A stretch of 64,000 nucleotides of DNA from Erysipelotrichaceae bacterium (GTDB lineage: Bacteria; Bacillota_I; Bacilli_A; Erysipelotrichales; Erysipelotrichaceae), in NCBI GenBank assembly GCA_017431225.1, contig JAFRLM010000020.1:1-64000 (forward strand), written 5' to 3'. Shown here in pieces: positions 1,905-64,000 of this stretch (positions are counted from its first letter, which is position 1; every line of letters starts with the position of its first letter). Position numbers and translations under genes: made by a program. Under the pieces are notes generated by a model that worked only from the letters and a program-made list of their open reading frames with translations, was not told the DNA's origin and ran no database searches.

Positions 1905-1919
1905 TGCTAAACTGAAATC
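1905..1919 (+). promoter_or_regulatory. Extended -10 promoter abutting acyP (leaderless)
   Basis: TGC-TAAACT (1905-1913) is a TGn-extended -10 hexamer that ends six bases before the ATG at 1920. Transcription would begin at or next to the start codon. No Shine-Dalgarno sequence fits. Confidence 0.55.
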
Positions 1920-2192
1920 ATGAAGAGATTCCATGTGATATTCAAAGGAGATGTCCAGGGTGTCGGTTTCCGCTACACCATCTCCGAGCTTGCTAAAAAG
2001 TATGATCTGTCCGGCAGCGTTGAGAATCTCAGCGACGGCACGGTCGAGGTGTATTTCCAGGGGGATGAGGAAGCGATCAAAGCAGCGATCGCCGAAGCGA
2101 CTTCGCCTCTGCGTTTTATCTACGTAACAGATACAGTCATCAACGAGGAGGAAGTCGACTACTATGAGCACTTCTTCCGCACCCGTTACTGA
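1920..2192 (+). CDS. acyP: Acylphosphatase
   Basis: Small cytosolic enzyme that hydrolyses the carboxyl-phosphate bond of acyl phosphates such as acetyl phosphate and 1,3-bisphosphoglycerate. The 90 residues match the family length. They contain the signature GDVQGVGFRY, with the phosphate-binding Arg at about residue 18, and GSVENLSDGTVEVYFQG with the substrate-positioning Asn. The 3' end overlaps the convergent RNA methyltransferase gene by 7 bases. The start lies directly behind a -10-like hexamer, suggesting a leaderless mRNA. Confidence 0.93.
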   Translation: MKRFHVIFKGDVQGVGFRYTISELAKKYDLSGSVENLSDGTVEVYFQGDEEAIKAAIAEATSPLRFIYVTDTVINEEEVDYYEHFFRTRY

Positions 2193-2893
2193 AAATGATA
2201 CATCACCAGCGTCGCGGCGATCGCGACGTTGAGTGAATCGATGTTCTGCATCGGGATCTTAACGGTCCTGTCTGCGGCATCCATCACTGCTTTTGTGACT
2301 CCTGAGCCTTCGTTTCCCACAACGAAGGCCATTTTTTCTTCCGCTTCGATCTCAGGAAGCGGAACGGTATTCGTGCTGAGCCCGGTCGCGTATACCGCGT
2401 ATCCCTGCTCTTTCAGTCTTTTGATCTCCCGGGCCAGTTCCCCGTGCGAGATGGCCAGCCGGAAATAACTGTCGCCGGCGGCTTCAAGCGCCTTTTCATG
2501 ATACAGATCGGCGCATTCCGGAGAAAGGATGAGCGAATCAAAACCGAAGAGCACAGCAGTGCGGGCGATCGTACCGATATTCAAAGGATCCTGCAGACTG
2601 TCCAGCATCAGGATACGTCTTCCCTCCGCCTGTTTTTCAGGGAGCTTGCGGCCGATGCCGAGTCTTTGTATATCCGGACGTCCGCTGATCTTTTCCATGA
2701 TCTCCGGCGTCACTTCCTCCGCATCGCTGAAAGCAAAAGTCTGCTCTCCTGTATATAGCAGAGTATCGATCAATCCGGCAGTCAGAGCGGTTTCAAGCGC
2801 CTTGCCGGTATAGAGGACTTCTTCGCTGCGGTATTTCTTCTGACGGAGTTTTGCCCATTCCTTGACTCTTTTGTTACTTAGTGAAGTGAGCAT
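2186..2893 (-). CDS. SpoU/TrmH-family RNA 2'-O-methyltransferase (first of two)
   Basis: S-adenosylmethionine-dependent RNA ribose methyltransferase of the SPOUT superfamily, 235 residues. An N-terminal RNA-binding domain (LTSLSNKRVKEWAKLRQKK) precedes the knotted catalytic domain with its three motifs: LQDPLNIGTIARTA, FVVGNEGSGV and IPMQNIDSLNVAIAATLV. The start at 2893 is chosen over an upstream GTG/ATG frame because AAAGGAGG sits seven bases before it. It overlaps the upstream gene by 20 bases and is the last gene of a four-gene RNA-modification operon. It resembles the B. subtilis YsgA group of putative 23S rRNA methyltransferases. The exact target nucleotide cannot be read from sequence. 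Confidence 0.85.
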   Translation of the reverse strand: MLTSLSNKRVKEWAKLRQKKYRSEEVLYTGKALETALTAGLIDTLLYTGEQTFAFSDAEEVTPEIMEKISGRPDIQRLGIGRKLPEKQAEGRRILMLDSLQDPLNIGTIARTAVLFGFDSLILSPECADLYHEKALEAAGDSYFRLAISHGELAREIKRLKEQGYAVYATGLSTNTVPLPEIEAEEKMAFVVGNEGSGVTKAVMDAADRTVKIPMQNIDSLNVAIAATLVMYHFQ

Positions 2894-3602
2894 AATTCCT
2901 CCTTTGGAAAACGGTCCCGCTGACGACCGCGACGGCACTGACGAGATTCAGCGCATTGCGGAAATCGGATCCGTAAGGGATGAAGATCTCCTTGTCGCAG
3001 AGTTTCAGGATCTCCGCCTTGATCCCGCGTTTCTCCCCTCCCAGGACAAAACAGACCTTGCCCTGAAAGTCCTCCGTAAAAAGATCTCCCGAGGAATCCG
3101 AACGCTGCAAGGCATAAAGACGGTAGCCCTTCGCTTTCAGCTGACGCAGTCTCTGTTCCAGATCCTCGCCGGCGTAAAGGCTGATCTTCTCATAGGCGCC
3201 TGCTGAGGAGCGGAGCACTGTCGCTTCGGAATCCTTGTAGTCCCGGGTCCCGGTCAGGATACCCTTAAAGCCGAACGCGCAGAGCGTACGCAGACAGTAA
3301 CCGAAATTGTACGGATCTTCGACTCCGTCGATCAGAAACAGGACATCCTGCTTCAGGAGCTGTTCAAACGGATCGCTGCGGCGCTGCGAGACTTCAGCGG
3401 CAACACCGCCTGTTCCATTGCCGAAACGTTCCTTCATTTCTTCCGCAGGCAGACGCAGAAGCTCTGTCTTTGTCTGCTTGCAGATCTTTTTCAGATAATT
3501 CGTTTCCCGGCTTTCCTTCCCGCTGACGAGCCAGACTCTCTCCACATCGCGGCGTTTATTCTCGATCGCCGCTTTTACACTGATCATTCCGCTGACGATC
3601 AT
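2874..3602 (-). CDS. SpoU/TrmH-family RNA 2'-O-methyltransferase (second), RlmB-like
   Basis: A 242-residue SPOUT methyltransferase. An N-terminal substrate-binding domain (about 1-85, VSGMISVKAAIENKRRDVE) is followed by the catalytic domain with motif 1 LIDGVEDPYNFGYCLRT, motif 2 FVLGGEKRGI and motif 3 IPYGSDFRNALNLVSAVAV. Motif 1 has Tyr-Asn-Phe-Gly where Pro-Xaa-Asn-Xaa-Gly is usual, and motif 3 has Arg-Asn-Ala-Leu-Asn in place of Ser-Leu-Asn. The substrate may therefore differ from that of classical RlmB. Its ATG overlaps the stop of the U32 gene upstream (ATGA), and its end overlaps the next methyltransferase by 20 bases, so translation is coupled. Confidence 0.8.
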   Translation of the reverse strand: MIVSGMISVKAAIENKRRDVERVWLVSGKESRETNYLKKICKQTKTELLRLPAEEMKERFGNGTGGVAAEVSQRRSDPFEQLLKQDVLFLIDGVEDPYNFGYCLRTLCAFGFKGILTGTRDYKDSEATVLRSSAGAYEKISLYAGEDLEQRLRQLKAKGYRLYALQRSDSSGDLFTEDFQGKVCFVLGGEKRGIKAEILKLCDKEIFIPYGSDFRNALNLVSAVAVVSGTVFQRRNYAHFTK

Positions 3603-4798: not shown

Positions 4799-5649
4799 TT
4801 TCTCAGATTCGTCTTCCGGTAAAGATAAGCTTCCGTGAATGTCTCTTCCGGGAAGCTTTCCTGAAGTTCGCGGCGTTTTTCCTCCGCGTTCCCGCTGTTC
4901 AGCTCCTGCAGGTCTTTCAGTACATGGAGAAGCACCTCTCTGTTTACATTGTCTCCGCAGAGGATGACCCTCCGGCAAAGCGGAAGAAGCTGCAGATATT
5001 CTTTATACGGAGCTGCGAAATCGTTTGTATAAACGATGCTTTCCTTTTCATTTTCAACGACCCGGTAACGTTCCCGGCGGTTCGCTTCCCGGATCAGATA
5101 GCCTTCTTTCGCGCGCGGATCCGCTTCGATCCCGGCATAATCAAAATAGGACTGCAGATATTTGCGGCGGCTTACGGCCATGATCAGCGGCCCGAAGAGC
5201 TGCAGATCGACTTTCCCGCCGGTGTTCTCGCAGATCGTTTTGATCTCTTCAAGTGTCAGCTCTCTGGCCGGAACACAGGACTGCACGCCTTGTTTCAGGA
5301 AAAAGGCTGTATCCAGTGAATTGGTCAGAAGCGTCAGCGGATCATAGATCAGAAGATCCTGCATGCCCATCGCTTTCGCTTCCCTGAGTACAGCAAGATC
5401 GGAAAAATAGACGCCGGCGACTTCTTTAGTGCGGATCACGCTGAGGTAGGTCCGCAGGAGCTCAAGGTCCTCTTCGTAGATCATCTGATCGATCGAGATA
5501 TAGACCTCCAGACCGTTCTCGCGGGCTTCCTTATACAGATGCAGATCATCGTATCTGGAGAAGAGCGATCCCAGGATCACGCCATCCGCCAGGCCTTTCA
5601 GATCGGCAGGGGTCAGATTGTTGTTAAGCAATGAAACGACTTTGTTCAT
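4795..5649 (-). CDS. trhP1: U32 peptidase-family protein, TrhP1/YrrN-like
   Basis: First gene of the operon. The 284-residue protein is a shorter, more divergent U32 paralogue with the recognisable strand pattern ADGVILGSLFSRYDDL, GVYFSDLAVLREAKAMG, YDPLTLLTNSLD, and CVPARELTLEEIKTICE in place of the VVLGRELSLEEI of the longer partner. The paired arrangement of a short and a long U32 protein is that of yrrN-yrrO in Bacillus, where both are needed for tRNA wobble-uridine hydroxylation. It lacks the cysteine-rich signature of its neighbour, so it is probably the non-catalytic partner. Confidence 0.75.
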   Translation of the reverse strand: MNKVVSLLNNNLTPADLKGLADGVILGSLFSRYDDLHLYKEARENGLEVYISIDQMIYEEDLELLRTYLSVIRTKEVAGVYFSDLAVLREAKAMGMQDLLIYDPLTLLTNSLDTAFFLKQGVQSCVPARELTLEEIKTICENTGGKVDLQLFGPLIMAVSRRKYLQSYFDYAGIEADPRAKEGYLIREANRRERYRVVENEKESIVYTNDFAAPYKEYLQLLPLCRRVILCGDNVNREVLLHVLKDLQELNSGNAEEKRRELQESFPEETFTEAYLYRKTNLRK

Positions 5650-5715
5650 GAAACTATTCTATCATGCAAAAACCGATGACAAACGGTTGAGTTTATGAAT
5701 ATAATGAAGCCACAG

Positions 5716-5799
5716 ATGACTTAGCGGTGCGTTAAGTGCCGGCCTGCAGGGATACATCAGGCCGGACGAAAAGGCAACTTGCGGTATCGCTGAAGTTTC
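5716..5799 (+). ncRNA. Tetrahydrofolate (THF, folT-type) riboswitch
   Basis: Matches the conserved core of the THF-I riboswitch: GCGTTAAGTG (5729-5738), GGGAT (5749-5753), ACGAA (5766-5770) and GCGGT (5781-5785). These are separated by a GCCGGCCTG...CAGGCCGG hairpin, and a closing stem pairs ACTTAGCG (about 5719-5726) with CGCTGAAGT (5788-5796). It sits directly upstream of a FolT-type transporter gene, its classical position. A second hairpin (TACATAA...TTATGTA, 5807-5825) between aptamer and ribosome-binding site may be the expression platform. THF binding is expected to lower folT expression. Confidence 0.88.
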
Positions 5800-5862
5800 C
5801 CGCTGTTACATAATCCAATTATGTAGCAATCGAAGTATCTGTCTGCAGAAAGGATGTGTAAC

Positions 5863-6462: not shown

Positions 6463-8295
6463 TTACTCTTCTTCTTCCGCAGCCGAGCGCATCTCACGCA
6501 TATGCTTGCGGCGGTCAAGATTGGTCAGGTAACGCTTGCGCAGACGGATCGCGGCCGGAGTGATCTCGACCAGCTCGTCGTCATTGATGAATTCAAGCGC
6601 TTCTTCCAGAGAGAAGATCTTCGGCGGAACGAGTTTCATCGCTTCATCGTTGCCGGTGGAACGGACAGCCGTCATCTTCTTGTTTTTCAGCGGGTTGACT
6701 TCAATATCCTGGTTCTCTGAGGAGACACCGACGATCATGCCTTCGTAGACTTCTGTCTGCGGGGAGATGAACAGCTGGCCTCTGTCCTGGATATTCCATA
6801 ACGCATAGGTCATCGCCTTGCCGGTATCGGTGGAGATCAGAGCACCGTTCTCACGCTGCGGGATCTCGCCGACATACGGAGCGTATTCGATGAAACGGCG
6901 GACCAGGATACCTTCACCCTTGGTCATATTGATAAAGTCGGAACGGAAACCCAGAAGGCTTCTTGTTGCCGCGTGGTAAATGATCTTGGTGTAGGACCCT
7001 TCGTCCTGTATATCGATCATCTGGCCTTTGCGCAGGTTCAGCATGTTGATGACGGAACCGCTGTAGTCGTTCGGTACGGAACAGATGACTTCCTCGATCG
7101 GTTCGCAGAGACGGCCTTCGATACGCTTGAAGATGACTTCCGGACGGGAAACACCGATCTCGTAGCCTTCACGGCGCATATTTTCCAGAAGGATCGAAAG
7201 ATGCAGCTCGCCGCGGCCGGATACCTTGAAGGTATCGGTGGAATCGGTCTCTTCAACGCGCAGACCGACATTGACTTCCAGTTCCCTCTCAAGACGTTCA
7301 CGGATGTTACGGGAAGTGACATATTTGCCGCTCTGTCCCTGGAAGGGAGACGTGTTGACCATGAAGTTCATCGACATCGTCGGCTCTTCGATCGCGATCT
7401 GCGGCATCGGTTCAACGTTTTCGCTGCCGACCGTATCGCCGATCTCGATATTCTCGATACCGGAGATCAGAACGATATCACCGCACTGTGCTTCATCGAT
7501 CGCGGTACGCTTCAGACCCTGATAGTTGAAGAGATTGGCGATCTTGCGGTTTTCCTTCTTGCCGTTGGAATTCACGACTTTGACGTTTTCGTTGGCTTTG
7601 ATGATACCGCCGTAAACACGGCCGATACCGATACGTCCGATATAGTCGTCATATGCCAGAGCGGATACCTGCATTTTCAGCGGTTCACCGCGCAGATCCG
7701 GATACGGCTCTACATGGGAGATGATCGTCTCGAAAAGCGGGATGATATCTTCGTTGGTATCATCGACCTCATAACGGACGATGCCGTCACGGGCGATACC
7801 GTACAGGATCGGGAAATCAAGCTGTTCATCGTTAGCTTCAAGATCCAGGAACAGATCATAGACTTCATCGATGACTTCACTGACACGGGAGTCCTGCTTG
7901 TCGATCTTGTTGATAAGGAGGATCGGCTTCAGTCCCTGTTCCAGTGATTTTTTCAGAACGAAACGGGTCTGCGGCATCGGTCCTTCAGCGGAGTCGACCA
8001 AAAGGATGACTGTATCGACAGTCTTGATGATCCGCTCAACTTCCGATGAAAAATCTGCGTGGCCGGGGGTGTCAACGATGTTGATCTTGTAATCCTTGTA
8101 AAAGACCGAACAGTTTTTGGAGTAGATGGTGATACCCCTTTCTCTTTCGAGATCGTTCGAATCCATGACTTGCTCCACGATCTCTTCATGTTCACCAAAA
8201 ACATGTGACTGTGCGAGGAAAGCGTCAACCAGTGTGCTTTTTCCGGCATCGACGTGGGCAATGACTGCCACGTTAATCATTTTCGTAAATTCCAT
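6463..8295 (-). CDS. typA: Ribosome-associated translational GTPase TypA/BipA
   Basis: EF-G-like GTPase that binds 70S ribosomes and helps 50S assembly and stress adaptation. The 610 residues show the full order: P-loop [10 protein letters not shown], switch regions with RERGITI and [17 protein letters not shown] for guanine recognition, the EF-Tu-like domain 2, domains III and V, and a C-terminal domain ending in RKRYLT and an acidic tail. The P-loop has Ala where most members have His (AHVDHGKT). Translation probably starts at the ATG at 8295, 6-8 bases from a -10-like hexamer with no Shine-Dalgarno; a second in-frame ATG is at 8280. Confidence 0.96.
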
Positions 8296-8301
8296 ACCCC
8301 A

Positions 8302-8332
8302 ATATTATATTCAACTTGACTTCTGTGAACAA
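8302..8332 (-). promoter_or_regulatory. typA promoter, near-leaderless
   Basis: On the minus strand TATAAT (8304-8309) lies eight bases before the ATG; the overlapping hexamer TAATAT leaves six. A weak -35, TTGTTC, lies 17 bases upstream. It is divergent from and interleaved with the tRNA-Leu promoter. Confidence 0.5.
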
Positions 8333-12275: not shown

Positions 12276-12782
12276 TTACTTCCCACTGCTACCGAGTCCG
12301 CCGGTCCTCTGACCTGTCACTTCCTCTTCTTCCGCAAGATAGTAGGATTTGAAGATGCCCTGAACGATACGTTCTCCTTTTTCGAGAACGACGGTCTCGC
12401 TCCCCAGATTTCTCAAGGCTATCAGGATATGTCCTTCGTTGTCGGCTTCATAGTAATCGGCATCGATGATCCCTACCGTATTGGCCAGGACCAGTGAGCG
12501 CTTGATGCCCAGTGATGACCTCGGATAGAGTTCCAGAACAAATCCGTAATTCATTCTAACACGAATACCCGACGGAATGACAACAAATTTTTGCGGATTT
12601 ATCACAATTTTGTACGGAGTGGCAAAATCATAGCCCGCAGAAGCCTTGCTGGCACGGTGCGGAAGGACGATTTTTTCGTATGCCTGCGCGATCTCTTCCT
12701 CTGTAACACCGGCGATCCGGTCGCGGCTGTCTTTGCAAAACTGTTCGAAGGAGACCTTCTCGAATGCTGCGATTCCTGTCAT
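12276..12782 (-). CDS. dut: dUTP diphosphatase (trimeric dUTPase)
   Basis: Hydrolyses dUTP to dUMP and pyrophosphate, keeping uracil out of DNA and feeding thymidylate synthesis. The 168 residues carry the five dUTPase motifs: SAGYDFATP, YPRSSLGIKRSLV, GIIDADYYEADNEGHI, GERIVQGIF, and the C-terminal Gly-rich arm RTGGLGSSGK that closes over the substrate. The N-terminus FEKVSFEQFCKD matches related Firmicutes enzymes and supports the ATG at 12782 rather than an upstream in-frame ATG. There is no Shine-Dalgarno site. It is followed by two tRNA genes in the same unit. Confidence 0.93.
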   Translation of the reverse strand: MTGIAAFEKVSFEQFCKDSRDRIAGVTEEEIAQAYEKIVLPHRASKASAGYDFATPYKIVINPQKFVVIPSGIRVRMNYGFVLELYPRSSLGIKRSLVLANTVGIIDADYYEADNEGHILIALRNLGSETVVLEKGERIVQGIFKSYYLAEEEEVTGQRTGGLGSSGK

Positions 12783-12788
12783 ACAAAA

Positions 12789-12797
12789 ATAATAACA
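12789..12797 (-). promoter_or_regulatory. Extended -10 promoter of dut (leaderless)
   Basis: On the minus strand TGT-TATTAT ends six bases before the ATG at 12782. No convincing -35 is seen. It is divergent from the tRNA-Ser(GCT) promoter. Confidence 0.55.
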
Positions 12798-16378: not shown

Positions 16379-16387
16379 TGGTAAAAT
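16379..16387 (+). promoter_or_regulatory. Extended -10 promoter of the acyltransferase gene (near-leaderless)
   Basis: TGG-TAAAAT (16379-16387) ends eight bases before the ATG at 16396. The AGGAG at 16374 overlaps this element and is too far upstream to serve as a ribosome-binding site. Confidence 0.45.
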
Positions 16388-16395
16388 AAAAAAAG

Positions 16396-18594
16396 ATGAA
16401 AACGAAACATCTTATGAAACTCGACCTGTTGCGGGTGATTCTGGCAGCGGCTGTTTTTCTTTTTCATATCGGACTGCTTCCGGGCGGTTATCTGGCCGTC
16501 CCTGCCTTTTTCACTCTAAGTGCCTATCTTTCAGCGAATTCCCTCCTGAAAGAAAAGAGTTTTTCCTTAAAGGATCATTATCTGCGTCGTCTGAAAAAGC
16601 TTTATCTGCCTCTGCTGGCAGTCGCTTTCGTATGCGTGGCCGTATTCTCCGGCGAAAGATTCAACTGGGTCGAAATGAAGCCGGAGACGCTTTCGGTCCT
16701 TTTTTCCTACAACAATTACTGGCAACTGAAGGCGAATCTCGATTACTTCACCCGTCATATCGCCTCACCCTTCATGCATCTGTGGTTCATCGCGATCCTG
16801 GTGCAGCTGGAACTGCTGCTTCCCCTGTTTGTCCTGCTTTTAAGAAAATGCGCGAGATCCCTTTCCCGGATCGCCCCGCTGCTGCTCTGTCTGATCCTGG
16901 TCTTCGCGTCCTATATCGTCTTCCTTCTGCAGCTGCGCAAGAGCGGAATGATGCAGGCCTATTACGGGACGTTCGCCCGCTGTCACGCCTATTTGCTCGG
17001 TGTCCTGCAGGCCTTCTTCGTGCATCTGATCGGCCGCCCGGGCTTCCGCGAAAAGAAGACTGCCGATCTTCTTTATTTCGTCTATCTCGCCGTTCTGGTG
17101 GTATTATTCATCTTTGTCGATGCCGCTTCCCCGTTCTTCGCGGTCGCGATGATCCTGTCTTCGCTGATCTGCATCCGCATGACAGACTACGCGGCTCTGG
17201 GAAACGAGACCCTCTTCGGAGAAAACTTCGATGCGGTGATCCTGCTGCTGGCAAAGATCAGCTACGAATTCTATCTTGTTCAGTATCCCTGGATCTTCTT
17301 TTTCCAGAACACCTCACTCCCCGCAGTCCTGCAGGGGATCCTCGTGTTCCTGCTGGCCCTTCTCTCTGCTCTCTTCTTACATTTCGTGTTCGATCTGCGT
17401 AAAGGAAAGACAAGGATCGTGCAGCTTGCTCTGTGTCTTCTGCTCACAGTTGCTTCCCTTTTCGGCGGCTACACCTGGCTGAAAGCGGAAGACCACAGCG
17501 AACAGACCGAGGAAATGAAGCAGAAGATGGAAGAGAGCCGGCAGCTGATCGAACAGAAGAACAGCGAATACTACAACAACGTGGCGATGCAGGAAGAAGA
17601 ACGCCGGCGTTTCGTTGAAGGCATGGAAAACAAGGAGGAAGCGGTAAGCGAACTGCTGAAACAGCTTCCGGTCACTGCCATCGGTGACTCGATCATGCTG
17701 GACCTCGTCAATCAGCTCTACGAACGTTTCCCGAACATCTATATCGACAGCGAGATCTCACGCGACCTTTACAGCGGAAACAAGATCCTGCAGGAACTGA
17801 AGGATCAGGGAAAACTGGCAGACATCATCCTGCTCTCCCTTTCGGTCAACGGCGATTACCGGGAAAAATACTGCGAGGAACTGATGGAGATCGCGGACGG
17901 CCGGGAAGTGTTCTGGGTCGATGCGGTCGGACCGGATGATCCGAACTTCAATGAGCGCTTTGCGGAATTCGCAAAAAAATATGACAACCTGCATATCGTC
18001 GAATGGGTCAAGGCTTCCCGCGGCCATCCCGAATACTTCTATTATGATCAGATCCACGTAATCGGCGCAGGTGTTCCTGCCCTGGCGAAAGAGATCTACG
18101 ATACCGTCTATAACTACTTCTATCTGAAATACGCGGATATCAGTCAGGAATTCCTGGACAAGCAGGCCGAGGAAGCGCGCAAGCGCATCGCCTTCTACGG
18201 CAACGGCGCTCTGATCAACGCTTATGAGACTTTAAGCGGCGCGTATCCGGGTGCCCTGTATAATGCCAAGGAATACGATTACGAGCTTCTCTATGAGGAG
18301 ATCGAAGAAAAGGTGAATGAGAATACACTTGAGAACCGGCTCGTCTTCCTCTTCGACAAACAGGCCGGACTGAACGAGAAAAACTACCGGAAGATCCTCG
18401 AACTCTGTGAGGGGCACGAGGTCTATATCATCAGTCTGACAAAGAAGAGACCGGCAGTCGAAAACGCCACCGTCATTGATTTCTACGCGGAGATCAAGGC
18501 GCATCCGGAATACCTGCTGAAAGACAAGGTCCATCTCAGCGAGGAAGGAAACAAAGCGCTGACCGCAAGCCTGCAGGCGCTCCTGCAGCCATAA
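16396..18594 (+). CDS. Membrane acyltransferase with two C-terminal SGNH-like domains (OatA-like)
   Basis: A 732-residue fusion. Residues 1 to about 360 are an acyltransferase-3 membrane domain (LDLLRVILAAAVFLFHIG with catalytic-type His, then about ten helices). A coiled linker rich in Glu/Gln follows (about 365-415). Then comes an SGNH hydrolase-like domain with AIGDSIMLD (about 429) and DQIHVIGAG (about 551), as in peptidoglycan O-acetyltransferase OatA. The remaining 150 residues look like a second, degenerate SGNH copy: GNG (about 599) in place of GDS, yet DKVHLSEEG (about 709) keeps the Asp-x-x-His. It probably moves acetyl groups across the membrane onto peptidoglycan or another surface glycan. 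The second copy may bind rather than catalyse. Confidence 0.85.
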   Translation: MKTKHLMKLDLLRVILAAAVFLFHIGLLPGGYLAVPAFFTLSAYLSANSLLKEKSFSLKDHYLRRLKKLYLPLLAVAFVCVAVFSGERFNWVEMKPETLSVLFSYNNYWQLKANLDYFTRHIASPFMHLWFIAILVQLELLLPLFVLLLRKCARSLSRIAPLLLCLILVFASYIVFLLQLRKSGMMQAYYGTFARCHAYLLGVLQAFFVHLIGRPGFREKKTADLLYFVYLAVLVVLFIFVDAASPFFAVAMILSSLICIRMTDYAALGNETLFGENFDAVILLLAKISYEFYLVQYPWIFFFQNTSLPAVLQGILVFLLALLSALFLHFVFDLRKGKTRIVQLALCLLLTVASLFGGYTWLKAEDHSEQTEEMKQKMEESRQLIEQKNSEYYNNVAMQEEERRRFVEGMENKEEAVSELLKQLPVTAIGDSIMLDLVNQLYERFPNIYIDSEISRDLYSGNKILQELKDQGKLADIILLSLSVNGDYREKYCEELMEIADGREVFWVDAVGPDDPNFNERFAEFAKKYDNLHIVEWVKASRGHPEYFYYDQIHVIGAGVPALAKEIYDTVYNYFYLKYADISQEFLDKQAEEARKRIAFYGNGALINAYETLSGAYPGALYNAKEYDYELLYEEIEEKVNENTLENRLVFLFDKQAGLNEKNYRKILELCEGHEVYIISLTKKRPAVENATVIDFYAEIKAHPEYLLKDKVHLSEEGNKALTASLQALLQP

Positions 18595-25780: not shown

Positions 25781-26549
25781 CGTAGTCCTCCTTTAAAAAG
25801 GCTTCCAGCACCAGATTGAAACGCTGTGCCTGATGGAAATAGGCGTAATGGTCATCTCCTTCGAAAACGACCAGAGCCGCGTTCGGCATCAGCTTTTCCA
25901 TTTCCTGTCCCTTGCTTAAAGGCGTTGCCTGATCATTACTGCCGAAAACGAGCAGTGTTTCCGGAGTGATCTCTCTTAAGAAAGGACGGACGTCGTCATT
26001 GACGACTTTGACGAAGGTTGCCCGCATAACGCCGGTCGCGTTGCGGTAGTCTTCGCTTCCCCGTTTCTGTGCTGCTTCTTCGACCTTCTGCTTTACGGAG
26101 GGAAGGTCTTTGATCAGCGGCAGCGAGGTGATCTTCTTGCCTGCCTTGTAGGTATAGGTCTTCATATACCAGTCAAGTGTGCGTTTATCGCGCAATCCGG
26201 CAGCGCCGGTCAGGATCATCTTGCGTACCGGATGCTTATGCGCGTAATGCAGCGCGATGCGGCAGCCGAAAGAATGTCCGATCAGGATCGGGTTCTCCAC
26301 TCCGAATTGATCGAGAAATTCCTTTAAAAAGACCGCGTAATCTTCAACACTGTACGGTGTCAAAGGCGGTGAGCTCTGCCCGAAACCCGGCAGATCGAGG
26401 TTATAAACGGTGAAATGCGGTTCGAGGAAAAGCGCGATCGCTTTCATCATCTCGGTATTCTGTCCCCAGCCGTGCAATAAAACGACCGGTTTACCGGACC
26501 CGCTTTTCTCGTAATAGCACTGTATACCCTGTAATTCTGTAAAAGCCAT
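25773..26549 (-). CDS. Alpha/beta-fold hydrolase
   Basis: A 258-residue serine hydrolase with the oxyanion segment LLHGWGQN, nucleophile elbow GHSFGCR (GxSxG), acid LLVFGSNDQATP and catalytic His in EGDDHYAYFHQ. It has no signal peptide. The start at 26549 is used because a TATAAT lies just six bases upstream, so a transcript from it would be leaderless; an in-frame start 24 codons further upstream lies before that hexamer. The 3' end overlaps murF by eight bases. Substrate unknown; its place ahead of murF-ddl suggests, but does not show, an envelope role. Confidence 0.85.
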   Translation of the reverse strand: MAFTELQGIQCYYEKSGSGKPVVLLHGWGQNTEMMKAIALFLEPHFTVYNLDLPGFGQSSPPLTPYSVEDYAVFLKEFLDQFGVENPILIGHSFGCRIALHYAHKHPVRKMILTGAAGLRDKRTLDWYMKTYTYKAGKKITSLPLIKDLPSVKQKVEEAAQKRGSEDYRNATGVMRATFVKVVNDDVRPFLREITPETLLVFGSNDQATPLSKGQEMEKLMPNAALVVFEGDDHYAYFHQAQRFNLVLEAFLKEDYDD

Positions 26550-26555
26550 ACAAAT

Positions 26556-26561
26556 ATTATA
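26556..26561 (-). promoter_or_regulatory. -10 element abutting the hydrolase gene (leaderless)
   Basis: Perfect TATAAT on the minus strand, six bases before the ATG at 26549 and just after the histidine kinase stop codon. No clear -35. Confidence 0.55.
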
Positions 26562-27891: not shown

Positions 27892-28541
27892 CCCAGTCTG
27901 TACCCGAAACCGTAGATCGTGCGGATGGAGATGTTCGGCATCTTCCGGCGCAGACGGCGGAGCGTATCATCAACGACACGGTCGGAACCGTAGAAGTCCT
28001 GTCCCCAGATCTGGGTCAGGATCTGTTCGCGCAGGAAAGCGGTGCCTTTGTTCTTGACGAACATCATCAGCAGATCGAATTCCTTCGTCGTCAGCTCCAG
28101 CGGTGTTCCGTTGTCATAAACGACCCGCTCGTTCTCGTCGATCTCATAGCCGTCGATCTGGATACGGTTCTCCTCGCGGTAGACACGGCGCATGATCGCG
28201 TTGACGCGCAGGACGAGTTCCTTCGGAGAGAAAGGTTTGGTGATATAGTCATCACTGCCTTTTTCCAGACCGATAATGCGGTCGAACTCCTTATCGCGGG
28301 CGCTCATGAAAATGACCGGGATATTGCGGTTGCGTTCCTTGACTTCGTCGAGCAGATCGAATCCGCTCTTGTCATCCAGCATGATATCGAGGATCCAGAG
28401 ATCGCAGGGATCGTCCAGATGCGAGTAAGCTTCGTCAAAGGTAAGATAGGAGTGAATGATGTAGCCTTCTTTCTCAAGATAACGCTTGACGAGCTCGTTT
28501 AGATCCTTCTCATCCTCAACGACGTTAATGATTCTCTTCAT
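27888..28541 (-). CDS. OmpR/PhoB-family response regulator
   Basis: A 217-residue regulator. The receiver domain (1-115) has acidic pocket VVEDEKD, phospho-acceptor Asp52 (ILDIMLDD) and Lys102 (DYITKPF). The winged-helix domain (about 128-217) has LTTKEFDLLMMFVKN, DDTLRRLRRK recognition helix and TIYGFGYRLG wing. It is translationally coupled to its kinase (4-base overlap). The ATG follows a TGG-TATCAT extended -10 by six bases, so the operon mRNA is probably leaderless. Downstream cell-wall genes are candidate targets by proximity only. Confidence 0.95.
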   Translation of the reverse strand: MKRIINVVEDEKDLNELVKRYLEKEGYIIHSYLTFDEAYSHLDDPCDLWILDIMLDDKSGFDLLDEVKERNRNIPVIFMSARDKEFDRIIGLEKGSDDYITKPFSPKELVLRVNAIMRRVYREENRIQIDGYEIDENERVVYDNGTPLELTTKEFDLLMMFVKNKGTAFLREQILTQIWGQDFYGSDRVVDDTLRRLRRKMPNISIRTIYGFGYRLG

Positions 28542-28547
28542 AGTTTA

Positions 28548-28556
28548 ATGATACCA
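28548..28556 (-). promoter_or_regulatory. Extended -10 promoter of the two-component operon (leaderless)
   Basis: On the minus strand TGG-TATCAT, then TAAACT, then the ATG at 28541: six bases between the hexamer and the start codon. Confidence 0.6.
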
Positions 28557-28612
28557 CAAAACTGCTGCGCAGCCGCTTCTGCCGGTTCTTCCCGCGCAAA
28601 GCGGAAATGGAA

Positions 28613-28618
28613 TACAAT
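28613..28618 (+). promoter_or_regulatory. -10 element abutting mutY (leaderless, GTG start)
   Basis: TACAAT, six bases, then GTG at 28625. The in-frame ATG at 28607 lies upstream of this hexamer and so would not be in the transcript. Confidence 0.5.
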
Positions 28619-28624
28619 AGAGCT

Positions 28625-36517: not shown

Positions 36518-36523
36518 TTTTAT

Positions 36524-36599: not shown

Positions 36600-36612
36600 A
36601 TTAGGTCACGCT

Positions 36613-36688
36613 GTCCCGGTAGCTCAGGCGGTAGAGCATCTGACTTTTAATCAGAGGGTCTGCGGTTCGATTCCGCATCGGGACACCA
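36613..36688 (+). tRNA. tRNA-Lys (anticodon TTT)
   Basis: Acceptor GTCCCGG with TCGGGAC, anticodon arm TCTGA-CTTTTAA-TCAGA, encoded CCA. Confidence 0.94.
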
Positions 36689-36692
36689 CTCT

Positions 36693-36766
<74 letters not shown>

Positions 36767-36820
36767 GAATAAGCACTCAGAGGTCCAGACGTTGGGCTTT
36801 TTTTATTGCCGGTTCTCGGC

Positions 36821-36826
36821 TATAAT
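36821..36826 (+). promoter_or_regulatory. -10 element of the solitary tRNA-Gly
   Basis: TATAAT 14 bases before the tRNA start. No -35 at normal spacing, so this tRNA may also receive read-through from the upstream cluster. Confidence 0.45.
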
Positions 36827-36839
36827 ATTTCTTGGAGTT

Positions 36840-36913
36840 GCGGGCGTAGTTCAATGGTAGAACTTCAGCTTCCCAAGCTGGCCACGCGGGTTCGATTCCC
36901 GTCGCCCGCTCCA
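36840..36913 (+). tRNA. tRNA-Gly (anticodon CCC)
   Basis: Acceptor GCGGGCG/CGCCCGC, anticodon arm CAGC around TTCCCAA, encoded CCA. With the GCC and TCC tRNAs, this window covers all glycine codons. Confidence 0.94.
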
Positions 36914-38539: not shown

Positions 38540-39383
38540 GCGAAGCGAGCAATACTGCTATAAACATGAGCCCTGCCCCGCAGAGCTCTTTTAAATTCAT
38601 CGCCTGATGCAGGATCAGCCAGCCTCCCAGTGCGGAAAAGACGCTTTCAAGGCACATGATGATCGAAGCCAAAGTCGGATGAACGTTTTTCTGTCCGAGG
38701 GTCTGGAAAGTATAGGCGACCCCGCCGGACAGGATACCGGCATATAACAGTGAAGGCAGAGCTTCACGCAATCCTTCGGTATGAAAACGGCCGCTTGCGA
38801 ACAGGATCACTGTACTCAGGGCTGCGGAAACAAAGACCTGCGCCATAGACAATGAAACACCATCGACCAGTCGGATATAATGGTTGACGGCTATGATCTG
38901 CAATGCGAAAAAGAAAGCGCCCAGGATCAGCAGAAGTTCCCCTTTGCCAAAACCAAGACTGCCGTTCATGCACAGCAGATACAGGCCGGCAACACTTAGA
39001 ACGACCGCCAGAAGTGTCCGCCAGGAGATCCGGCTGCCGGTAAAGAAAGTGAGCAAAGGCACGATCACCACATACATCGCGGTCAGAAATCCGGCTCTTG
39101 CGGTCGTTGTCATCGGGATCGCGATCTGCTGCAGGATCGAGGCGATAAAGAGCGCGGAACCGCAGACAAGACCGGCCTGGCACAGTGTTTTCCAGTCCTC
39201 TGCGGCCGGGCGGCGGATCTTCCGGAAAAGAAAGATCACAATGAAAGCAAGCCAGCTGCGGCACGCGAGAAACATCAACGGATCGACATAATCCGCACCA
39301 ATGCGCTGAGCGGTGAATGCAAAACCCCAGATCGCCGCTGCTGCAAACAGCAGAAGCGAATAAAGAGACTGTTTTTTAAACAT
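38532..39383 (-). CDS. EamA/DMT-family permease
   Basis: A 283-residue protein with ten hydrophobic helices in two repeated halves of five, each with the EamA pattern (AAAAIWGFAFTAQRIG, MTTTARAGFLTAMYVVIVPLL, and HPTLASIIMCLESVFSALGGWLILHQ). It is probably a metabolite exporter or uptake carrier; substrate unknown. The start at 39383 (MFKKQSLYS) is placed by the family N-terminus and by the -10 element six bases upstream; a longer open frame upstream lies outside that transcript. Confidence 0.88.
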   Translation of the reverse strand: MFKKQSLYSLLLFAAAAIWGFAFTAQRIGADYVDPLMFLACRSWLAFIVIFLFRKIRRPAAEDWKTLCQAGLVCGSALFIASILQQIAIPMTTTARAGFLTAMYVVIVPLLTFFTGSRISWRTLLAVVLSVAGLYLLCMNGSLGFGKGELLLILGAFFFALQIIAVNHYIRLVDGVSLSMAQVFVSAALSTVILFASGRFHTEGLREALPSLLYAGILSGGVAYTFQTLGQKNVHPTLASIIMCLESVFSALGGWLILHQAMNLKELCGAGLMFIAVLLASLS

Positions 39384-39389
39384 AGAAAT

Positions 39390-39398
39390 ATAATAACA
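39390..39398 (-). promoter_or_regulatory. Extended -10 promoter of the EamA gene (leaderless)
   Basis: On the minus strand TGT-TATTAT ends six bases before the ATG at 39383. This is the same element and spacing as at dut. Confidence 0.6.
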
Positions 39399-48584: not shown

Positions 48585-48590
48585 TAAAAT
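48585..48590 (+). promoter_or_regulatory. -10 element abutting the MFS gene (leaderless)
   Basis: TAAAAT preceded by TG, seven bases before the ATG at 48598. An in-frame ATG at 48589 overlaps the hexamer and is excluded. Confidence 0.5.
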
Positions 48591-48597
48591 GGAACCT

Positions 48598-49791
48598 ATG
48601 AAAAGAATCCTTAACCGGGATCATATCCTGATCCAGACGGCGTTTTATATCTGTTTCGCGGCACTGATGGGCTTTGGCACCTTCACGATGCTGAGCCGCG
48701 GTTACAATGCCTCGACGATCGGCGTGCTCATCGCCCTGGCCAATCTTTCCAGCATCGTCTTCAATTATCTGATCTCCGCCCTGCAGGGAAAACTGAAAAC
48801 GGTCAGCGCTTTTCAGATGGCTTTCTTTGTTTCGCTTGCCCTGCTGGCCGCCTATACCGGGAACGCGCTCTGCGCAAGACCGTCCTTTGCCCTGAGTCTG
48901 AGTTATCTGCTGTGCATCGCCTTTACGTTCTCGCTGACACCGCTGATCGATTCGCTCAATTCCGCGCTGATCAAAAACGGCATCGACATCCACTTCGGTG
49001 TTGCCCGTTCCTTCGGTTCCCTGTCCTACGGGATCTCCTGCATCGTCTTCGGTTATATCGCCTCGGCAGCCGGATGGCAGGCGATCGTCTGGCTGCTGGT
49101 CCTGTTTCATCTCGTATTGATCTTCTTCCTATATATCAGCGGCAGACATTTCGCCCGGATCGATACAGCAGAAGCGGGAGAAGAAGAAAAGGAAACACTT
49201 CACTTCCTGGAATTCATCAAGAACCGTCCTTCCTTTTTCCTGACCTGCATCGGTTATGCCGGACTGATGGGCTGTTTCAACCTGATCATGGAAAGCTTCC
49301 TTCTGCCGATCCTGCTCAGTGTCGGCGGAACGACCGTTGACTCCGGCATCGTCCAGGGGATCAAGGCGTTCATGGAAGTTCCCTTCATTTTCTGTTTTCA
49401 TCTGATCGAACGCCGTTTCTCTCTGCGCTCGATCTTTACGGTCTCCGTATTCAGTTTCTTCGCCAAGTGTCTGATCATGTACGCGGCCCGCACTGTCGTC
49501 CCGATCTACGCTTCCCAGATCCTGCAGGGGACATCGCTCGCGCTCCTTTTGCCGGCCTATGTCTCCTACATCAACCGGACCATGAAGAAAAACGAGATCG
49601 CTCTGGCTTACGCGCTGCAGGCAATGAGCCTGACTGCAGTGCAGATGCTGCTGAATTCCTTCGGCGGCTATGTGCTCGATCTCTACGGTGTCAAGCCACT
49701 GTGCATGCTGGCAGCTGTACTTACCGCTCTCAGCGGCTACCTGCTGCTGCGTCATCTCCGTCCGGCAGATACTGCCAAACAGACAGTCTGA
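48598..49791 (+). CDS. MFS permease
   Basis: A 397-residue transporter with twelve hydrophobic helices in two halves, separated by a charged cytoplasmic loop (about 190-205, AEAGEEEKE). The FGVARSFGSLSYGI segment in helix 5 and the overall pattern resemble the MFS_1-like/LacY-type group that includes nucleoside and oligosaccharide symporters. Substrate unknown. It is transcribed alone, between buk and a convergent hydrolase gene. Confidence 0.85.
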   Translation: MKRILNRDHILIQTAFYICFAALMGFGTFTMLSRGYNASTIGVLIALANLSSIVFNYLISALQGKLKTVSAFQMAFFVSLALLAAYTGNALCARPSFALSLSYLLCIAFTFSLTPLIDSLNSALIKNGIDIHFGVARSFGSLSYGISCIVFGYIASAAGWQAIVWLLVLFHLVLIFFLYISGRHFARIDTAEAGEEEKETLHFLEFIKNRPSFFLTCIGYAGLMGCFNLIMESFLLPILLSVGGTTVDSGIVQGIKAFMEVPFIFCFHLIERRFSLRSIFTVSVFSFFAKCLIMYAARTVVPIYASQILQGTSLALLLPAYVSYINRTMKKNEIALAYALQAMSLTAVQMLLNSFGGYVLDLYGVKPLCMLAAVLTALSGYLLLRHLRPADTAKQTV

Positions 49792-54812: not shown

Positions 54813-55703
54813 TTATTTGACGGAAAAGCTCCCCAGATAGCGGAATTCGAGGGAAGACTGCTGACACAGTTTCTGATAATCCCCATAGGAACTCCCGGCG
54901 CATTCGATCACATAGACATAGTGGCCAAGTTCTGTTTTCAAAGGACGGTCATGGATCGCGACCAGCACCATCTTCAGCTCTTCCATCTTTTTCATCAAAG
55001 CAGGCAGTTCCTCCGCCGGTCCGGAAGCCAGGAAAGCCAGCCGGTCCGCGGACTCCGTAGCTGCCTGTTCGGTGGAAAGAACATAGAAACGAGTCTTATT
55101 GAAATCGCTGTTCTGGATCCCCGGAGCAAGGACCTTCAGCCCGTAAACTTCCGCGCTGCCCGCAGAGGCGATCGCCGCGCAGGAAGGATCGTTTCCCTCC
55201 GCTACGAGTCTGGCGCCTTCCGCTGTGCTTGAGACAACGACTGTTTCCGCTTCCGGGAGATTCGTCTTCAGCCATTCCGCGCCCTGGGTCAGGCCCTGCG
55301 GATGTGAATAGACTGTCCTGATCTGACTGAGCTCCGCGCCCGGAAGCGAAAGCAGATTCTGCGTGATCGGCAGCTCCACTTCCCCGACGACAGATAAAGA
55401 AGGATGCGCGATCAGGATATCGACATAATCGATCACCGCTCCGCCAATGGTATTCTCCTGCGGAATGACCGCGTAGCGGCTCTCTCCATTCAGCAGTGCC
55501 TCTACAGCATCCGCGACAGTCTCATACGGCTGCAGGGAAGCCTGCTCATCAAAAAACGTTTTACACGCTTCTTCGGTATATGTGCCGCGCGGTCCCAGAT
55601 AACTGACTTTGGCGGTCTGATCGATCACCACCGGGATCGTCTCTTCCGCAGCGGAACAGCCCGCCAGCAGAAAAACAAGGATCATCAATACTAATTTCTT
55701 CAT
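54813..55703 (-). CDS. Prephenate dehydratase-like lipoprotein with ACT domain
   Basis: A 296-residue protein with an N-terminal lipoprotein signal (MKKLVLMILVFLLAGC, lipid Cys16), then a complete PheA-type dehydratase: VSYLGPRGTYTEEA, YAVIPQENTIGGAVIDYVDIL, YSHPQGLTQGAEWL, and NKTRFYVLS with the catalytic Thr-Arg-Phe. A C-terminal ACT domain follows (EELKMVLVAIHDRPLKTELGHYVYVIECAG). Normal prephenate dehydratases are cytosolic and make phenylpyruvate for phenylalanine synthesis; an exported lipid-anchored form is unusual. It may be a real enzyme outside the cell, or an amino-acid sensor. It starts seven bases after a TATAAT. Confidence 0.85.
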   Translation of the reverse strand: MKKLVLMILVFLLAGCSAAEETIPVVIDQTAKVSYLGPRGTYTEEACKTFFDEQASLQPYETVADAVEALLNGESRYAVIPQENTIGGAVIDYVDILIAHPSLSVVGEVELPITQNLLSLPGAELSQIRTVYSHPQGLTQGAEWLKTNLPEAETVVVSSTAEGARLVAEGNDPSCAAIASAGSAEVYGLKVLAPGIQNSDFNKTRFYVLSTEQAATESADRLAFLASGPAEELPALMKKMEELKMVLVAIHDRPLKTELGHYVYVIECAGSSYGDYQKLCQQSSLEFRYLGSFSVK

Positions 55704-55710
55704 CTTTTTA

Positions 55711-55716
55711 ATTATA
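55711..55716 (-). promoter_or_regulatory. -10 element abutting the prephenate dehydratase-like gene (leaderless)
   Basis: TATAAT on the minus strand, preceded by TTG, seven bases before the ATG at 55703. Confidence 0.5.
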
Positions 55717-62906: not shown

Positions 62907-62935
62907 ACTTTAAATCGTTTATTTTCCTTTGTCAA
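62907..62935 (-). promoter_or_regulatory. Promoter of ssrA
   Basis: On the minus strand TTGACA (62930-62935), 17-base spacer, TAAAGT (62907-62912). The -35 overlaps the smpB stop codon. Confidence 0.8.
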
Positions 62936-63381
62936 TAACGGCGCATCGCTTTCTCCGCCTCGCGTTTCATCGTGCGGACTTTCGATGCTTCACGTTTGTC
63001 GTAGAGATTCTTACCTTTTGCCAGGGCGATCTCAAGTTTCGCAAGTCCGGAACTCAGATACAGCCTCAGCGGGATAACCGTATACCCGTCCAGTTTGGAC
63101 TTGGAAAACAGTTTGACGATCTCCCTGCGGTGAAGAAGCAGCTTGCGGTCACGGTCAGCATCGTGATTGTTGTAGGTGCCGAAAGTATAAACAGCGATAT
63201 GAAGTCCCTTGATCCAGGCTTCCCCTTCGCTGAAAGAGATATAGGCATCCTGGAATGACGCTTTTCCGTTCCGCAGAGATTTGATCTCTGTACCCTGCAG
63301 GACCAGTCCGGCCTCATAGGTATCCTCGATGAAATAATCGTGATATGCTTTTTTATTTCGTGCGATCTCTTTAACTGCCAT
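62932..63381 (-). CDS. smpB: SsrA-binding protein
   Basis: Binds tmRNA and delivers it to stalled ribosomes in trans-translation. The 149 residues match SmpB: IARNKKAYHDYFIEDTYEAGLVLQGTEIKSLRNGKASFQDAYI, YNNHDADRDRKLLLHRREI, GYTVIPLRLYLSSGLAKLEIALAKGKNLYDKREASK, and a basic C-terminal tail. It lies between rnr and ssrA, as in many Firmicutes. Its ATG is six bases after a TATAAT that is also the last two sense codons of rnr, so it can be made from its own leaderless mRNA. Confidence 0.97.
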   Translation of the reverse strand: MAVKEIARNKKAYHDYFIEDTYEAGLVLQGTEIKSLRNGKASFQDAYISFSEGEAWIKGLHIAVYTFGTYNNHDADRDRKLLLHRREIVKLFSKSKLDGYTVIPLRLYLSSGLAKLEIALAKGKNLYDKREASKVRTMKREAEKAMRRY

Positions 63382-63384
63382 ATG

Positions 63385-64000
63385 CTAATTATACCCCTTT
63401 CTTAAGGGAGAAACCTCAATTCTTTTGTAGTGCCAGTCGATGCCGAGGATATAGACACGAACGGTATCTCCGAGCTTATAGGACGTCTGTTCGAATTCAC
63501 TGTCCAGATACATGAAGACTTCGATCCCGTTCTTCAAAGACATATAGACCCCGAAAGGCTGGATCGAGGTAACGATCGCAGTCGCTTTCCTGCCGATCCT
63601 GCTTTCCGCATAAACGCATGCGGCGACTTTATCCGCTTCACGTTCGATCTTGACCGCATCGATCTCCTTCTGGTTGACCTGCGCGGCGATGCCTTTAAGA
63701 TCCTTCTCTTCCCTGAATCTCTCGTCGCGGAACACGTGTCTGTGCAGTGCCCGGTGAACGAGCAGATCCGGATAACGGCGGATCGGTGAAGTGAAGTGAC
63801 AGTAGTTTTCCAGCGCCAGAGCATAGTGCCCCTTGCTTTCGGGCGCGTATTTGGCTTTCGCCTGCGCGCGCAGAAGCAGATTGTAAAGATAATCGCAGCC
63901 CTCTTTGTCTTCAAGATAGCGTAACGCGTTTAAGATCTCCTCACGCTGCGTCTCTCCTACCCGCGGACAGCCGACGGCGTCCGCTTCCGCGAAGAAGTCT
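63385..64000 (-). CDS. rnr: Ribonuclease R, C-terminal part (continues off the right edge)
   Basis: A 3'-5' exoribonuclease that degrades structured RNA and, with tmRNA-SmpB, non-stop mRNAs. The window holds the last 204 residues. They contain the end of the RNB catalytic domain (KAKYAPESKGHYALALENYCHFTSPIRRYPDLLVHR) and the C-terminal S1 domain (GRKATAIVTSIQPFGVYMSLKNGIEVFMYLDS...YKLGDTVRVYILGID). The frame is open to the edge. It is followed after 3 bases by smpB, the common rnr-smpB order. The basic tail beyond S1 that E. coli RNase R has is absent, as in other Firmicutes. Confidence 0.93.
   Translation of the reverse strand, partial: DFFAEADAVGCPRVGETQREEILNALRYLEDKEGCDYLYNLLLRAQAKAKYAPESKGHYALALENYCHFTSPIRRYPDLLVHRALHRHVFRDERFREEKDLKGIAAQVNQKEIDAVKIEREADKVAACVYAESRIGRKATAIVTSIQPFGVYMSLKNGIEVFMYLDSEFEQTSYKLGDTVRVYILGIDWHYKRIEVSPLRKGYN
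63388..63393 (-). promoter_or_regulatory. -10 element of smpB inside the end of rnr (leaderless)
   Basis: TATAAT on the minus strand encodes the last two residues (Tyr-Asn) of RNase R; the rnr stop codon lies in the six bases before the smpB ATG. Confidence 0.5.

What the first reader, a model, noticed from the sequence alone, without database searches (positions are those of the whole stretch)
1905..63393. Many genes have a -10 hexamer 6-9 bases before the start codon: widespread leaderless mRNAs
At seven genes the hexamer ends exactly six bases before the start codon: acyP TAAACT (1908), dut TATTAT (12789-12794), hydrolase TATAAT (26556), response regulator TATCAT (28548), mutY TACAAT before a GTG (28613), EamA TATTAT (39390), smpB TATAAT (63388). 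Near matches are MFS and the dehydratase lipoprotein (7 bases), acyltransferase and typA (8), and TraB (9). Several are TGn-extended (acyP, dut, response regulator, EamA, acyltransferase), and -35 boxes are mostly poor. None has a Shine-Dalgarno sequence, while other genes here have clear GGAGG sites. With a start point about seven bases after the hexamer, the mRNA 5' end would be at the start codon. This design is familiar in Actinobacteria and Deinococcus but not expected to be common in Bacillota.
Basis: partly seen in the sequence, partly recalled or inferred. Interest (0 to 1): 0.8.

Follow-up and report, generated by a model that had tools for sequence, protein, structure and literature searches.

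The report
Many start-codon promoters: predicted leaderless genes
In this uncultured gut bacterium of the family Erysipelotrichaceae roughly one gene in ten seems to carry its promoter so close to the start codon that its mRNA should begin at, or within about three bases of, that codon; this way of starting translation is known in other bacteria, and here it looks unusually common for its phylum, although no RNA has been measured.

Summary
All twelve listed sites lie where stated; one more was missed (5649). In 638,026 bases (41%) of the genome, TANAAT ends exactly six bases before 19 of 515 starts chosen without upstream signals, against 0.1 expected from internal ATGs. A start model puts 75 of 519 genes in this class; five models with shifted spacers give 0, 11, 1, 0, 0. 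The class avoids Shine-Dalgarno genes. In spacer-6 genes the base before the start codon is a pyrimidine in 38 of 39 (SD genes 240 of 399), as expected if transcription starts on the start codon. Orthologues keep the spacing in 34 of 38 cases, against 2 of 120 for SD genes. The organism is an uncultured Erysipelotrichaceae (Bacillota). The signal is strongest in its genus, patchy in its family, and not seen in two named Erysipelothrix species, six Bacillaceae-type or five Lachnospiraceae genomes. Leaderless mRNAs are mapped in streptococci at 8-9%. This is a new, frequency-rich lineage of a known kind. No 5' ends were measured.

The parts
1908..1920 (+). acyP (PF00708): TGC-TAAACT at 1908-1913, spacer 6, ATG at 1920; no orthologue tested
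5649..5661 (-).
8295..8309 (-). typA/bipA: TATAAT at 8304-8309, spacer 8, ATG at 8295; perhaps a leader of about 2 bases; no orthologue tested
12782..12794 (-). dut (PF00692): TGT-TATTAT at 12789-12794, spacer 6, ATG at 12782; a TANNNT at spacer 6 in all six relatives lined up
16382..16396 (+). acyltransferase (PF01757): TGG-TAAAAT at 16382-16387, spacer 8, ATG at 16396; kept in both relatives lined up
26549..26561 (-). alpha/beta hydrolase (PF00561): TATAAT at 26556-26561, spacer 6, ATG at 26549; TATAAT 6-8 bases before the start in six of seven relatives lined up, absent in one (L177)
28541..28553 (-). response regulator (PF00072, PF00486): TGG-TATCAT at 28548-28553, spacer 6, ATG at 28541; kept in five of seven relatives lined up; not in L169 (hexamer further upstream) or L155
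28613..28625 (+). mutY (PF00730, PF14815): TACAAT at 28613-28618, spacer 6, GTG at 28625; kept in three of three same-genus relatives; divergent from the response regulator, 83 bases between the two start codons
33716..33731 (+). TraB/PrgY family: TACAAT at 33716-33721, spacer 9, ATG at 33731; weakest call, an AGGA lies between them; no orthologue tested
39383..39395 (-). EamA transporter (PF00892): TGT-TATTAT at 39390-39395, spacer 6, ATG at 39383; no orthologue tested
48585..48598 (+). MFS transporter (PF07690): TAAAAT at 48585-48590, spacer 7, ATG at 48598; no orthologue tested
55703..55716 (-). prephenate dehydratase (PF00800): TATAAT at 55711-55716, spacer 7, ATG at 55703; no orthologue tested
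63381..63393 (-). smpB (PF01668): TATAAT at 63388-63393, spacer 6, ATG at 63381; among 38 relatives printed, seen only in the two that are 99% identical

Best explanation
Between about 7% and 14% of the genes in the sampled DNA, and 13% to 31% of those that need a promoter of their own (depending on how starts and such genes are chosen), are read from ordinary housekeeping (sigma-A-type) promoters whose -10 box, often TGn-extended and with a weak -35, ends 6 to 9 bases before the start codon. RNA polymerase starts at a purine after a pyrimidine, which at spacer 6 is the first base of the start codon itself; at spacers 7-9 it would give a leader of about 1-3 bases. Such mRNAs cannot carry a Shine-Dalgarno sequence and are presumably translated by recognition of the 5'-terminal AUG by ribosomes carrying initiator tRNA. 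Sequence anatomy, spacing, exclusion of Shine-Dalgarno genes and conservation are shown; the 5' ends, the sigma factor and the route of translation are inferred. The architecture is strongest in this genus and patchy in its family.
For: TANAAT at offsets 6/7/8 before 515 starts: 19/7/7, zero at 13-16; expected at 6-8 from internal ATGs at most 0.1. Start model: 75 of 519 genes, spacers 6/7/8/9/10 in 39/15/12/8/1, motif TGGTATAAT; shifted-spacer controls 0, 11, 1, 0, 0. A -10 at 6-8 in 2 of 305 SD genes against 46 of 210 others, p = 2e-17. Pyrimidine before the start codon in 38 of 39 spacer-6 genes against 240 of 399 SD genes, p = 1.9e-7; promoter-like sites further upstream of SD genes show the pyrimidine-purine pair most often at the same distance, 39 of 89 against 0.15-0.30 at the other distances. 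Divergent genes of the class lack a second strong -10 upstream (0 of 39 score 7 or more, against 9 of 81 SD genes), while 14 of 17 strong -10s of SD genes lie 20-34 bases from the start. Orthologues: 34 of 38 keep it, against 2 of 120 SD genes. Whole genome: TATAAT 6-8 before ATG 92, 12-14 before ATG 29.
Against: I saw no RNA data for this organism. Starts come from a home-made gene caller; with coding-only starts the class is 48 of 515, of which about 11 are expected by chance (sum of the control values at 6-8), so nearer 7% than 14%. Four of 38 orthologues do not have TANNNT at 6-8, and smpB shows it in only 2 of 38 relatives printed. The reversed-pattern control of the whole-genome count also differs between near and far in this genome (22 against 11), though not in G001 (6 and 6) or G041 (14 and 12). 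In 80-kb samples of eleven genomes, this one included, the test was too weak: this genome gave 3 genes against 0.9 expected, G039 0 against 2.2, Beduini 1 against 2.6. For spacers 7-9 the pyrimidine signature is not significant.
Confidence: 0.92

Rival explanations
1. The hexamers are real promoters but the start codons are wrong: translation begins further downstream behind a leader with a Shine-Dalgarno sequence.
For: For dut, mutY and EamA the start is not the one chosen by coding score alone, and for hydrolase it is not the first ATG.
Against: Orthologues at 46-99% protein identity align from the proposed first codon or the next one (dut, response regulator, hydrolase), and the hexamer-to-start spacing is kept even where the start codon has moved by one codon relative to the protein (dut in L163, L175, L176). 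A wrong-start artefact would not be expected to put a pyrimidine before 38 of 39 starts.
Confidence: 0.04
2. The hexamer is an AU-rich translation signal in a longer leader, as at S1-binding or AT-rich non-SD sites, and transcription starts further upstream.
For: Non-SD genes with AT-rich bases upstream are described in other phyla (PMC5397173, passages).
Against: The motif is a TGn-extended TATAAT with fixed spacing, not general AT-richness; divergent genes of the class lack another strong -10 at 18-140 bases upstream; nine divergent pairs leave only 22-125 bases between two start codons.
Confidence: 0.03
3. Chance matches in AT-rich upstream DNA, selected by eye.
For: TANNNT is a loose pattern; in the window alone the excess is 6 against 1.2.
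Against: The genome sample, shifted-spacer controls, reversed-pattern control (10 against 0) and orthologue conservation speak against it.
Confidence: 0.01

Closest known systems
Leaderless genes of streptococci (S. pyogenes 8.6%, S. agalactiae 8% of mRNAs, S. pneumoniae 9% of operons; PMC6431027, PMC4448216, PMC6212727, abstract and passages seen)
   Same: Same phylum; in S. agalactiae 90% of the leaderless transcripts start at the A of the AUG; 54 are shared by S. pyogenes and S. agalactiae.
   Different: There the 5' ends are measured, and leaderless cut-offs differ (under 5 bases in S. agalactiae). Here the predicted share of promoter-bearing genes is higher: 64 of 307 genes that are divergent or at least 50 bases from the gene before them, 39 of 124 divergent genes; with coding-only starts 41 of 320, chance matches included.
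Leaderless genes with TA-like signals predicted by Zheng et al. 2011 (PMC3160421, passages seen)
   Same: Same signal, a Pribnow box just before the start codon; a TG peak before it in several low-GC genomes.
   Different: In Firmicutes they report 56 of 209 genomes, mean 4.2%, concentrated in Lactobacillales and Mycoplasma, the latter averaging 18.3% in five genomes, above my estimate here; the word Erysipel- does not occur in the text. This genome is about 50% GC.
Leaderless mRNAs of Actinobacteria and Deinococcus-Thermus (Zheng et al. 2011 means 19.2% and 39.4%)
   Same: Same anatomy.
   Different: Different phyla, higher predicted shares; there the centre of the hexamer is little conserved (TAnnnT), here it is close to TATAAT.
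Solventogenic clostridia (PMC9045289, passage seen)
   Same: Bacillota with mapped 5' ends.
   Different: Only about 2-3% of transcripts leaderless.

Membership tests
leaderless genes with a -10 box at the start codon | -10 hexamer ending about 6-8 bases before the start codon, more often than chance | tested here: met
leaderless genes with a -10 box at the start codon | no Shine-Dalgarno sequence | tested here: met
   -10 at 6-8 in 2 of 305 SD genes against 46 of 210 others; TraB is an exception in the window
leaderless genes with a -10 box at the start codon | pyrimidine-purine initiator placed on the start codon | tested here: met
   38 of 39 for spacer 6; not shown for spacers 7-9
leaderless genes with a -10 box at the start codon | architecture conserved in relatives | tested here: met
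   34 of 38 against 2 of 120; smpB not conserved beyond 99%-identical relatives among 38 printed
leaderless genes with a -10 box at the start codon | primary 5' end at or within a few bases of the start codon | not testable with these tools
   no RNA data held
leaderless genes with a -10 box at the start codon | translated without a leader | not testable with these tools
   shown for one pneumococcal gene elsewhere (PMC6212727, passage seen)

The most novel reading that the evidence does not exclude
A clade inside Erysipelotrichaceae has independently made leaderless expression a major mode of gene expression for Bacillota: a fifth or more of its promoter-bearing genes, more than the 8-9% mapped in streptococci, while Shine-Dalgarno initiation stays in use beside it. 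It arose within the family rather than being inherited together with the Mollicutes (where Mycoplasma is predicted to be high as well), and perhaps again in some Clostridia (Mageeibacillus UBA4314, less surely Saccharofermentans RUI031).
Probability: 0.45. Interest if true: 0.5.

Novelty: new member of a known kind. Interest (0 to 1): 0.38.

Why it matters
Gene finders that rely on a Shine-Dalgarno sequence or on the longest frame are likely to misplace starts in this genus (inference): in dut, hydrolase, mutY and EamA the first ATG of the frame lies upstream of the predicted start. A family in which genera differ sharply in this trait, with orthologues caught in both states (response regulator, hydrolase, smpB), makes the gain and loss of leaderless expression testable gene by gene. 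It also adds a lineage for which I found no report to the Bacillota with many predicted leaderless genes.

Tried and rejected
A trait shared with the Mollicutes was considered and finds no support here: two named Erysipelothrix species give near/far ratios of 1.03, Beduini 0.90, one Acholeplasmataceae 0.66. It is not excluded: no genome named Mycoplasma was tested, and Mycoplasma is predicted to be high.

A survey by 80-kb samples of eleven genomes, this one included, was too small and is not used as evidence: class genes against expected were 3 and 0.9 (own), 5 and 1.5 (G001), 6 and 2.9 (G023), 3 and 2.3 (G009), 5 and 3.2 (Erysipelothrix), 8 and 3.9 (G026), 0 and 2.2 (G039), 1 and 2.6 (Beduini), 2 and 1.6 (Mageeibacillus), 3 and 1.1 (Bacillus), 2 and 0.9 (Alicyclobacillus). 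Whole-genome pattern counts replaced it.

The class survey with TGNTATAATN6ATG (395 genomes) has only a reversed-pattern control and unnamed families; I looked through its table without computing statistics and rely on the near/far counts instead.

An excess of divergent leaderless pairs was considered: 9 of 62 divergent pairs, about 6 expected from the class frequencies by hand, so not claimed.

I recalled a Cappable-seq study of the mouse gut as covering an Erysipelotrichaceae; its passages show no such species.

Functional bias of the leaderless genes was not tested: Pfam was run on 18 of the 75.

Full report
What the window is. Its SmpB is 99% identical to those of two MAGs labelled Erysipelotrichaceae bacterium (RGIG5766, sheep ileum; S37M_St_43), with further Erysipelotrichaceae and Solobacterium at 55-72%. 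Solobacterium lies in Bacillota, class Erysipelotrichia. The genome is an incomplete MAG of 1.56 Mb in 25 contigs, 85.8% complete, about 50% GC in the part read.

The observation. All twelve hexamers lie at the stated places with the stated spacings, and one more spacer-6 site, before a U32 peptidase gene at 5649, was missed. Twelve of the 13 have no GGAG, GAGG or AGGA in bases -20 to -4; TraB has AGGA at -9 to -6.

Is it chance? I wrote a gene caller that chooses starts from coding score and start codon only, blind to upstream signals, and ran it on the window plus stretches of the same genome, 638,026 bases, 519 genes, 515 with enough upstream DNA. TANAAT ends 6, 7 and 8 bases before the start in 19, 7 and 7 genes, and in none at 13-16; it rises again (2-7 per offset) at 18-30, where leadered promoters are expected. 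Internal in-frame ATGs (3,824, scaled) give at most 0.1 at offsets 6-8. TANNNT at 6 is 29 against 4.2; permuting upstream columns among the first 262 genes gives 4.6 against 16. A -10 (TANNNT) at 6-8 occurs in 2 of 305 genes with a Shine-Dalgarno sequence and in 46 of 210 without (Fisher 2e-17). These 48 of 515 include about 11 expected by chance from the control values, so the conservative excess is about 7% of genes. A second model let start, signal type and motif be learnt together: 399 SD, 75 leaderless-type (14%), 45 neither, motif TGGTATAAT, with spacers 6, 7, 8, 9 and 10 in 39, 15, 12, 8 and 1 genes. Given other spacers, the same procedure finds 0 (11-17), 11 (18-24), 1 (25-31), 0 (32-38) and 0 (39-45).

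Where transcription starts. Bacterial RNA polymerase prefers a purine after a pyrimidine (established; seen again in PMC4782308). In 89 promoter-like sites upstream of SD genes, that pair is commonest with six bases between hexamer and purine (39 of 89, against 0.15-0.30 at the other distances). [quoted passage not shown] that base was not part of either model. With coding-only starts it is 18 of 19 for TANAAT and 27 of 29 for TANNNT. At spacers 7, 8 and 9 the base six after the hexamer is a purine in 10 of 15, 10 of 12 and 6 of 8, which suggests leaders of 1-3 bases; the pyrimidine test is not significant there.

Architecture. Genes whose upstream neighbour is divergent, and so must have a promoter, are leaderless-type in 39 of 124 cases; genes that are divergent or at least 50 bases from a same-strand neighbour, in 64 of 307; 22 genes without a called neighbour were dropped. 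With coding-only starts the figure is 41 of 320, chance included. Divergent leaderless-type genes have no second strong -10 at 18-140 bases upstream (0 of 39 score 7 or more; SD genes 9 of 81), while 14 of 17 strong -10s of divergent SD genes lie 20-34 bases from the start. Two designs thus seem to coexist: -10 at about 20-34 with Shine-Dalgarno, or -10 at 6-9 without.

Conservation. One 17.8-kb part of the window was compared with eight handles, seven distinct genomes since G003 and G041 are the same (identical coordinates), and upstream regions were lined up. Then the start of each own protein was compared with the fetched DNA of relatives, keeping best hits of 45% identity or more that align within six residues of the start and are not cut by an end: 168 orthologue pairs, ten of them of genes with neither signal. 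Orthologues of leaderless-type genes have TANNNT at 6-8 in 7 of 7 (G001), 18 of 20 (G003), 5 of 5 (G002), 3 of 3 (G045/G048) and 1 of 3 (G042/G043), 34 of 38 in all; orthologues of SD genes in 2 of 120. The two misses in G003 keep the variant of the window's genome (GATAAT at 6, TAGAAT at 9). The start could move by up to six codons in this test; the SD genes had the same freedom. Some genes are counted in several relatives. In dut the start codon has moved by one codon relative to the protein in L163, L175 and L176, and the six-base spacing moved with it. Losses are visible: response regulator in L169 and L155, hydrolase in L177, and smpB, where by eye only 2 of 38 printed relatives, both 99% identical, show it. 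Six of the window's 13 genes had an orthologue.

Distribution. I counted TATAAT followed by ATG at 6-8 bases and, as a control, at 12-14 bases, in whole genomes. Of 44 named or own genomes the four highest ratios are this genome 3.17, RGIG5766 2.86, RGIG2492 2.62 and RGIG8004 2.56. Not all near relatives are high: SUG1439 and E08 bin134, whose SmpB is 72% and 69% identical, give 1.65 and 1.35, whereas RGIG2492 and RGIG8004 are at 68-69%. Other Erysipelotrichaceae and Solobacterium lie between 1.13 and 1.60; two named Erysipelothrix species 1.03 each, one MAG labelled Erysipelothrix sp. 1.44, Beduini 0.90, six Bacillaceae-type genomes 0.81-1.04, three Alicyclobacillus 0.73-1.13, five Lachnospiraceae 0.69-1.16, one Acholeplasmataceae 0.66. 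Among Clostridia, Mageeibacillus UBA4314 stands out (1.71, p = 5e-5); Saccharofermentans RUI031 (1.39, p = 0.005) does not survive correction for 44 tests. The reversed pattern differs between near and far in this genome (22 and 11), not in RGIG5766 (14 and 12), RGIG2492 (24 and 29) or RGIG8004 (17 and 21). In the GTDB family, 57 genomes drawn: same-genus G001 3.55, this genome 3.17, nine of 57 significant after correction, 27 of 57 at or below 1.1, one of these with no match at all. The trait is therefore strongest in this genus and patchy in the family, and on this sample not a property of the phylum.

What is known. Zheng et al. 2011 (PMC3160421, passages) predicted leaderless genes in 56 of 209 Firmicutes genomes, mean 4.2%, concentrated in Lactobacillales and Mycoplasma (five genomes, average 18.3%). 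Mapped 5' ends give 8.6% in S. pyogenes, 8% in S. agalactiae, all AUG and 90% starting at its A, 9% of operons in S. pneumoniae with efficient translation of one reporter, 2-3% in three clostridia, nine transcripts in M. gallisepticum. A gut Cappable-seq study reports 10% and 15% in Akkermansia and Bifidobacterium; its other two species were L. johnsonii and a Lachnospiraceae. The StartLink paper says that 21.6% of bacterial species are predicted to use leaderless transcription. All these papers were seen as abstract or passages only. Searches for leaderless with Erysipelotrich- (5 papers, two looked into), Erysipelothrix (1 paper) and Solobacterium (none) listed nothing about it in this group by title or passage; this covers only the open-licence library.

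Verdict. It is a known mechanism in a lineage where I found no report of it, at a share that appears to exceed that mapped in streptococci, though not that predicted for Mycoplasma.

Noticed in passing
window 28541-28625: The response regulator and mutY start codons face away from each other 83 bases apart, both leaderless-type, so the stretch between them holds two back-to-back promoters; nine such pairs among 62 divergent pairs lie in the sampled 638 kb, gaps 22-125 bases.
   Followed up: partly
window 5711-5807: Tetrahydrofolate riboswitch (RF01831) on the + strand, upstream of the gene whose start the model puts at 5863 and next to the divergent leaderless-type U32 gene.
   Followed up: no
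L052-L055, upstream of smpB: In these four relatives an inverted repeat (AATAGTGAAAT...ATTTCACTATTTT) lies directly before smpB, like a terminator or attenuator, where the window has the leaderless promoter.
   Followed up: no
G068 (Mageeibacillus UBA4314, via L104) and G450 (Saccharofermentans RUI031, via L124): Two Clostridia with a near/far excess of TATAAT before ATG (1.71 and 1.39, the second not significant after correction); in G068 the extended pattern gives 24 hits against 0 in the reversed control.
   Followed up: partly
G019 and G288 (same family): Two 2.3-Mb family members have 0 and 1 TATAAT...ATG matches in the near count, against dozens to hundreds in the other 55; perhaps a very different base composition.
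   Followed up: no
window 36092-36910: Cluster of seven tRNA genes on the + strand.
   Followed up: no
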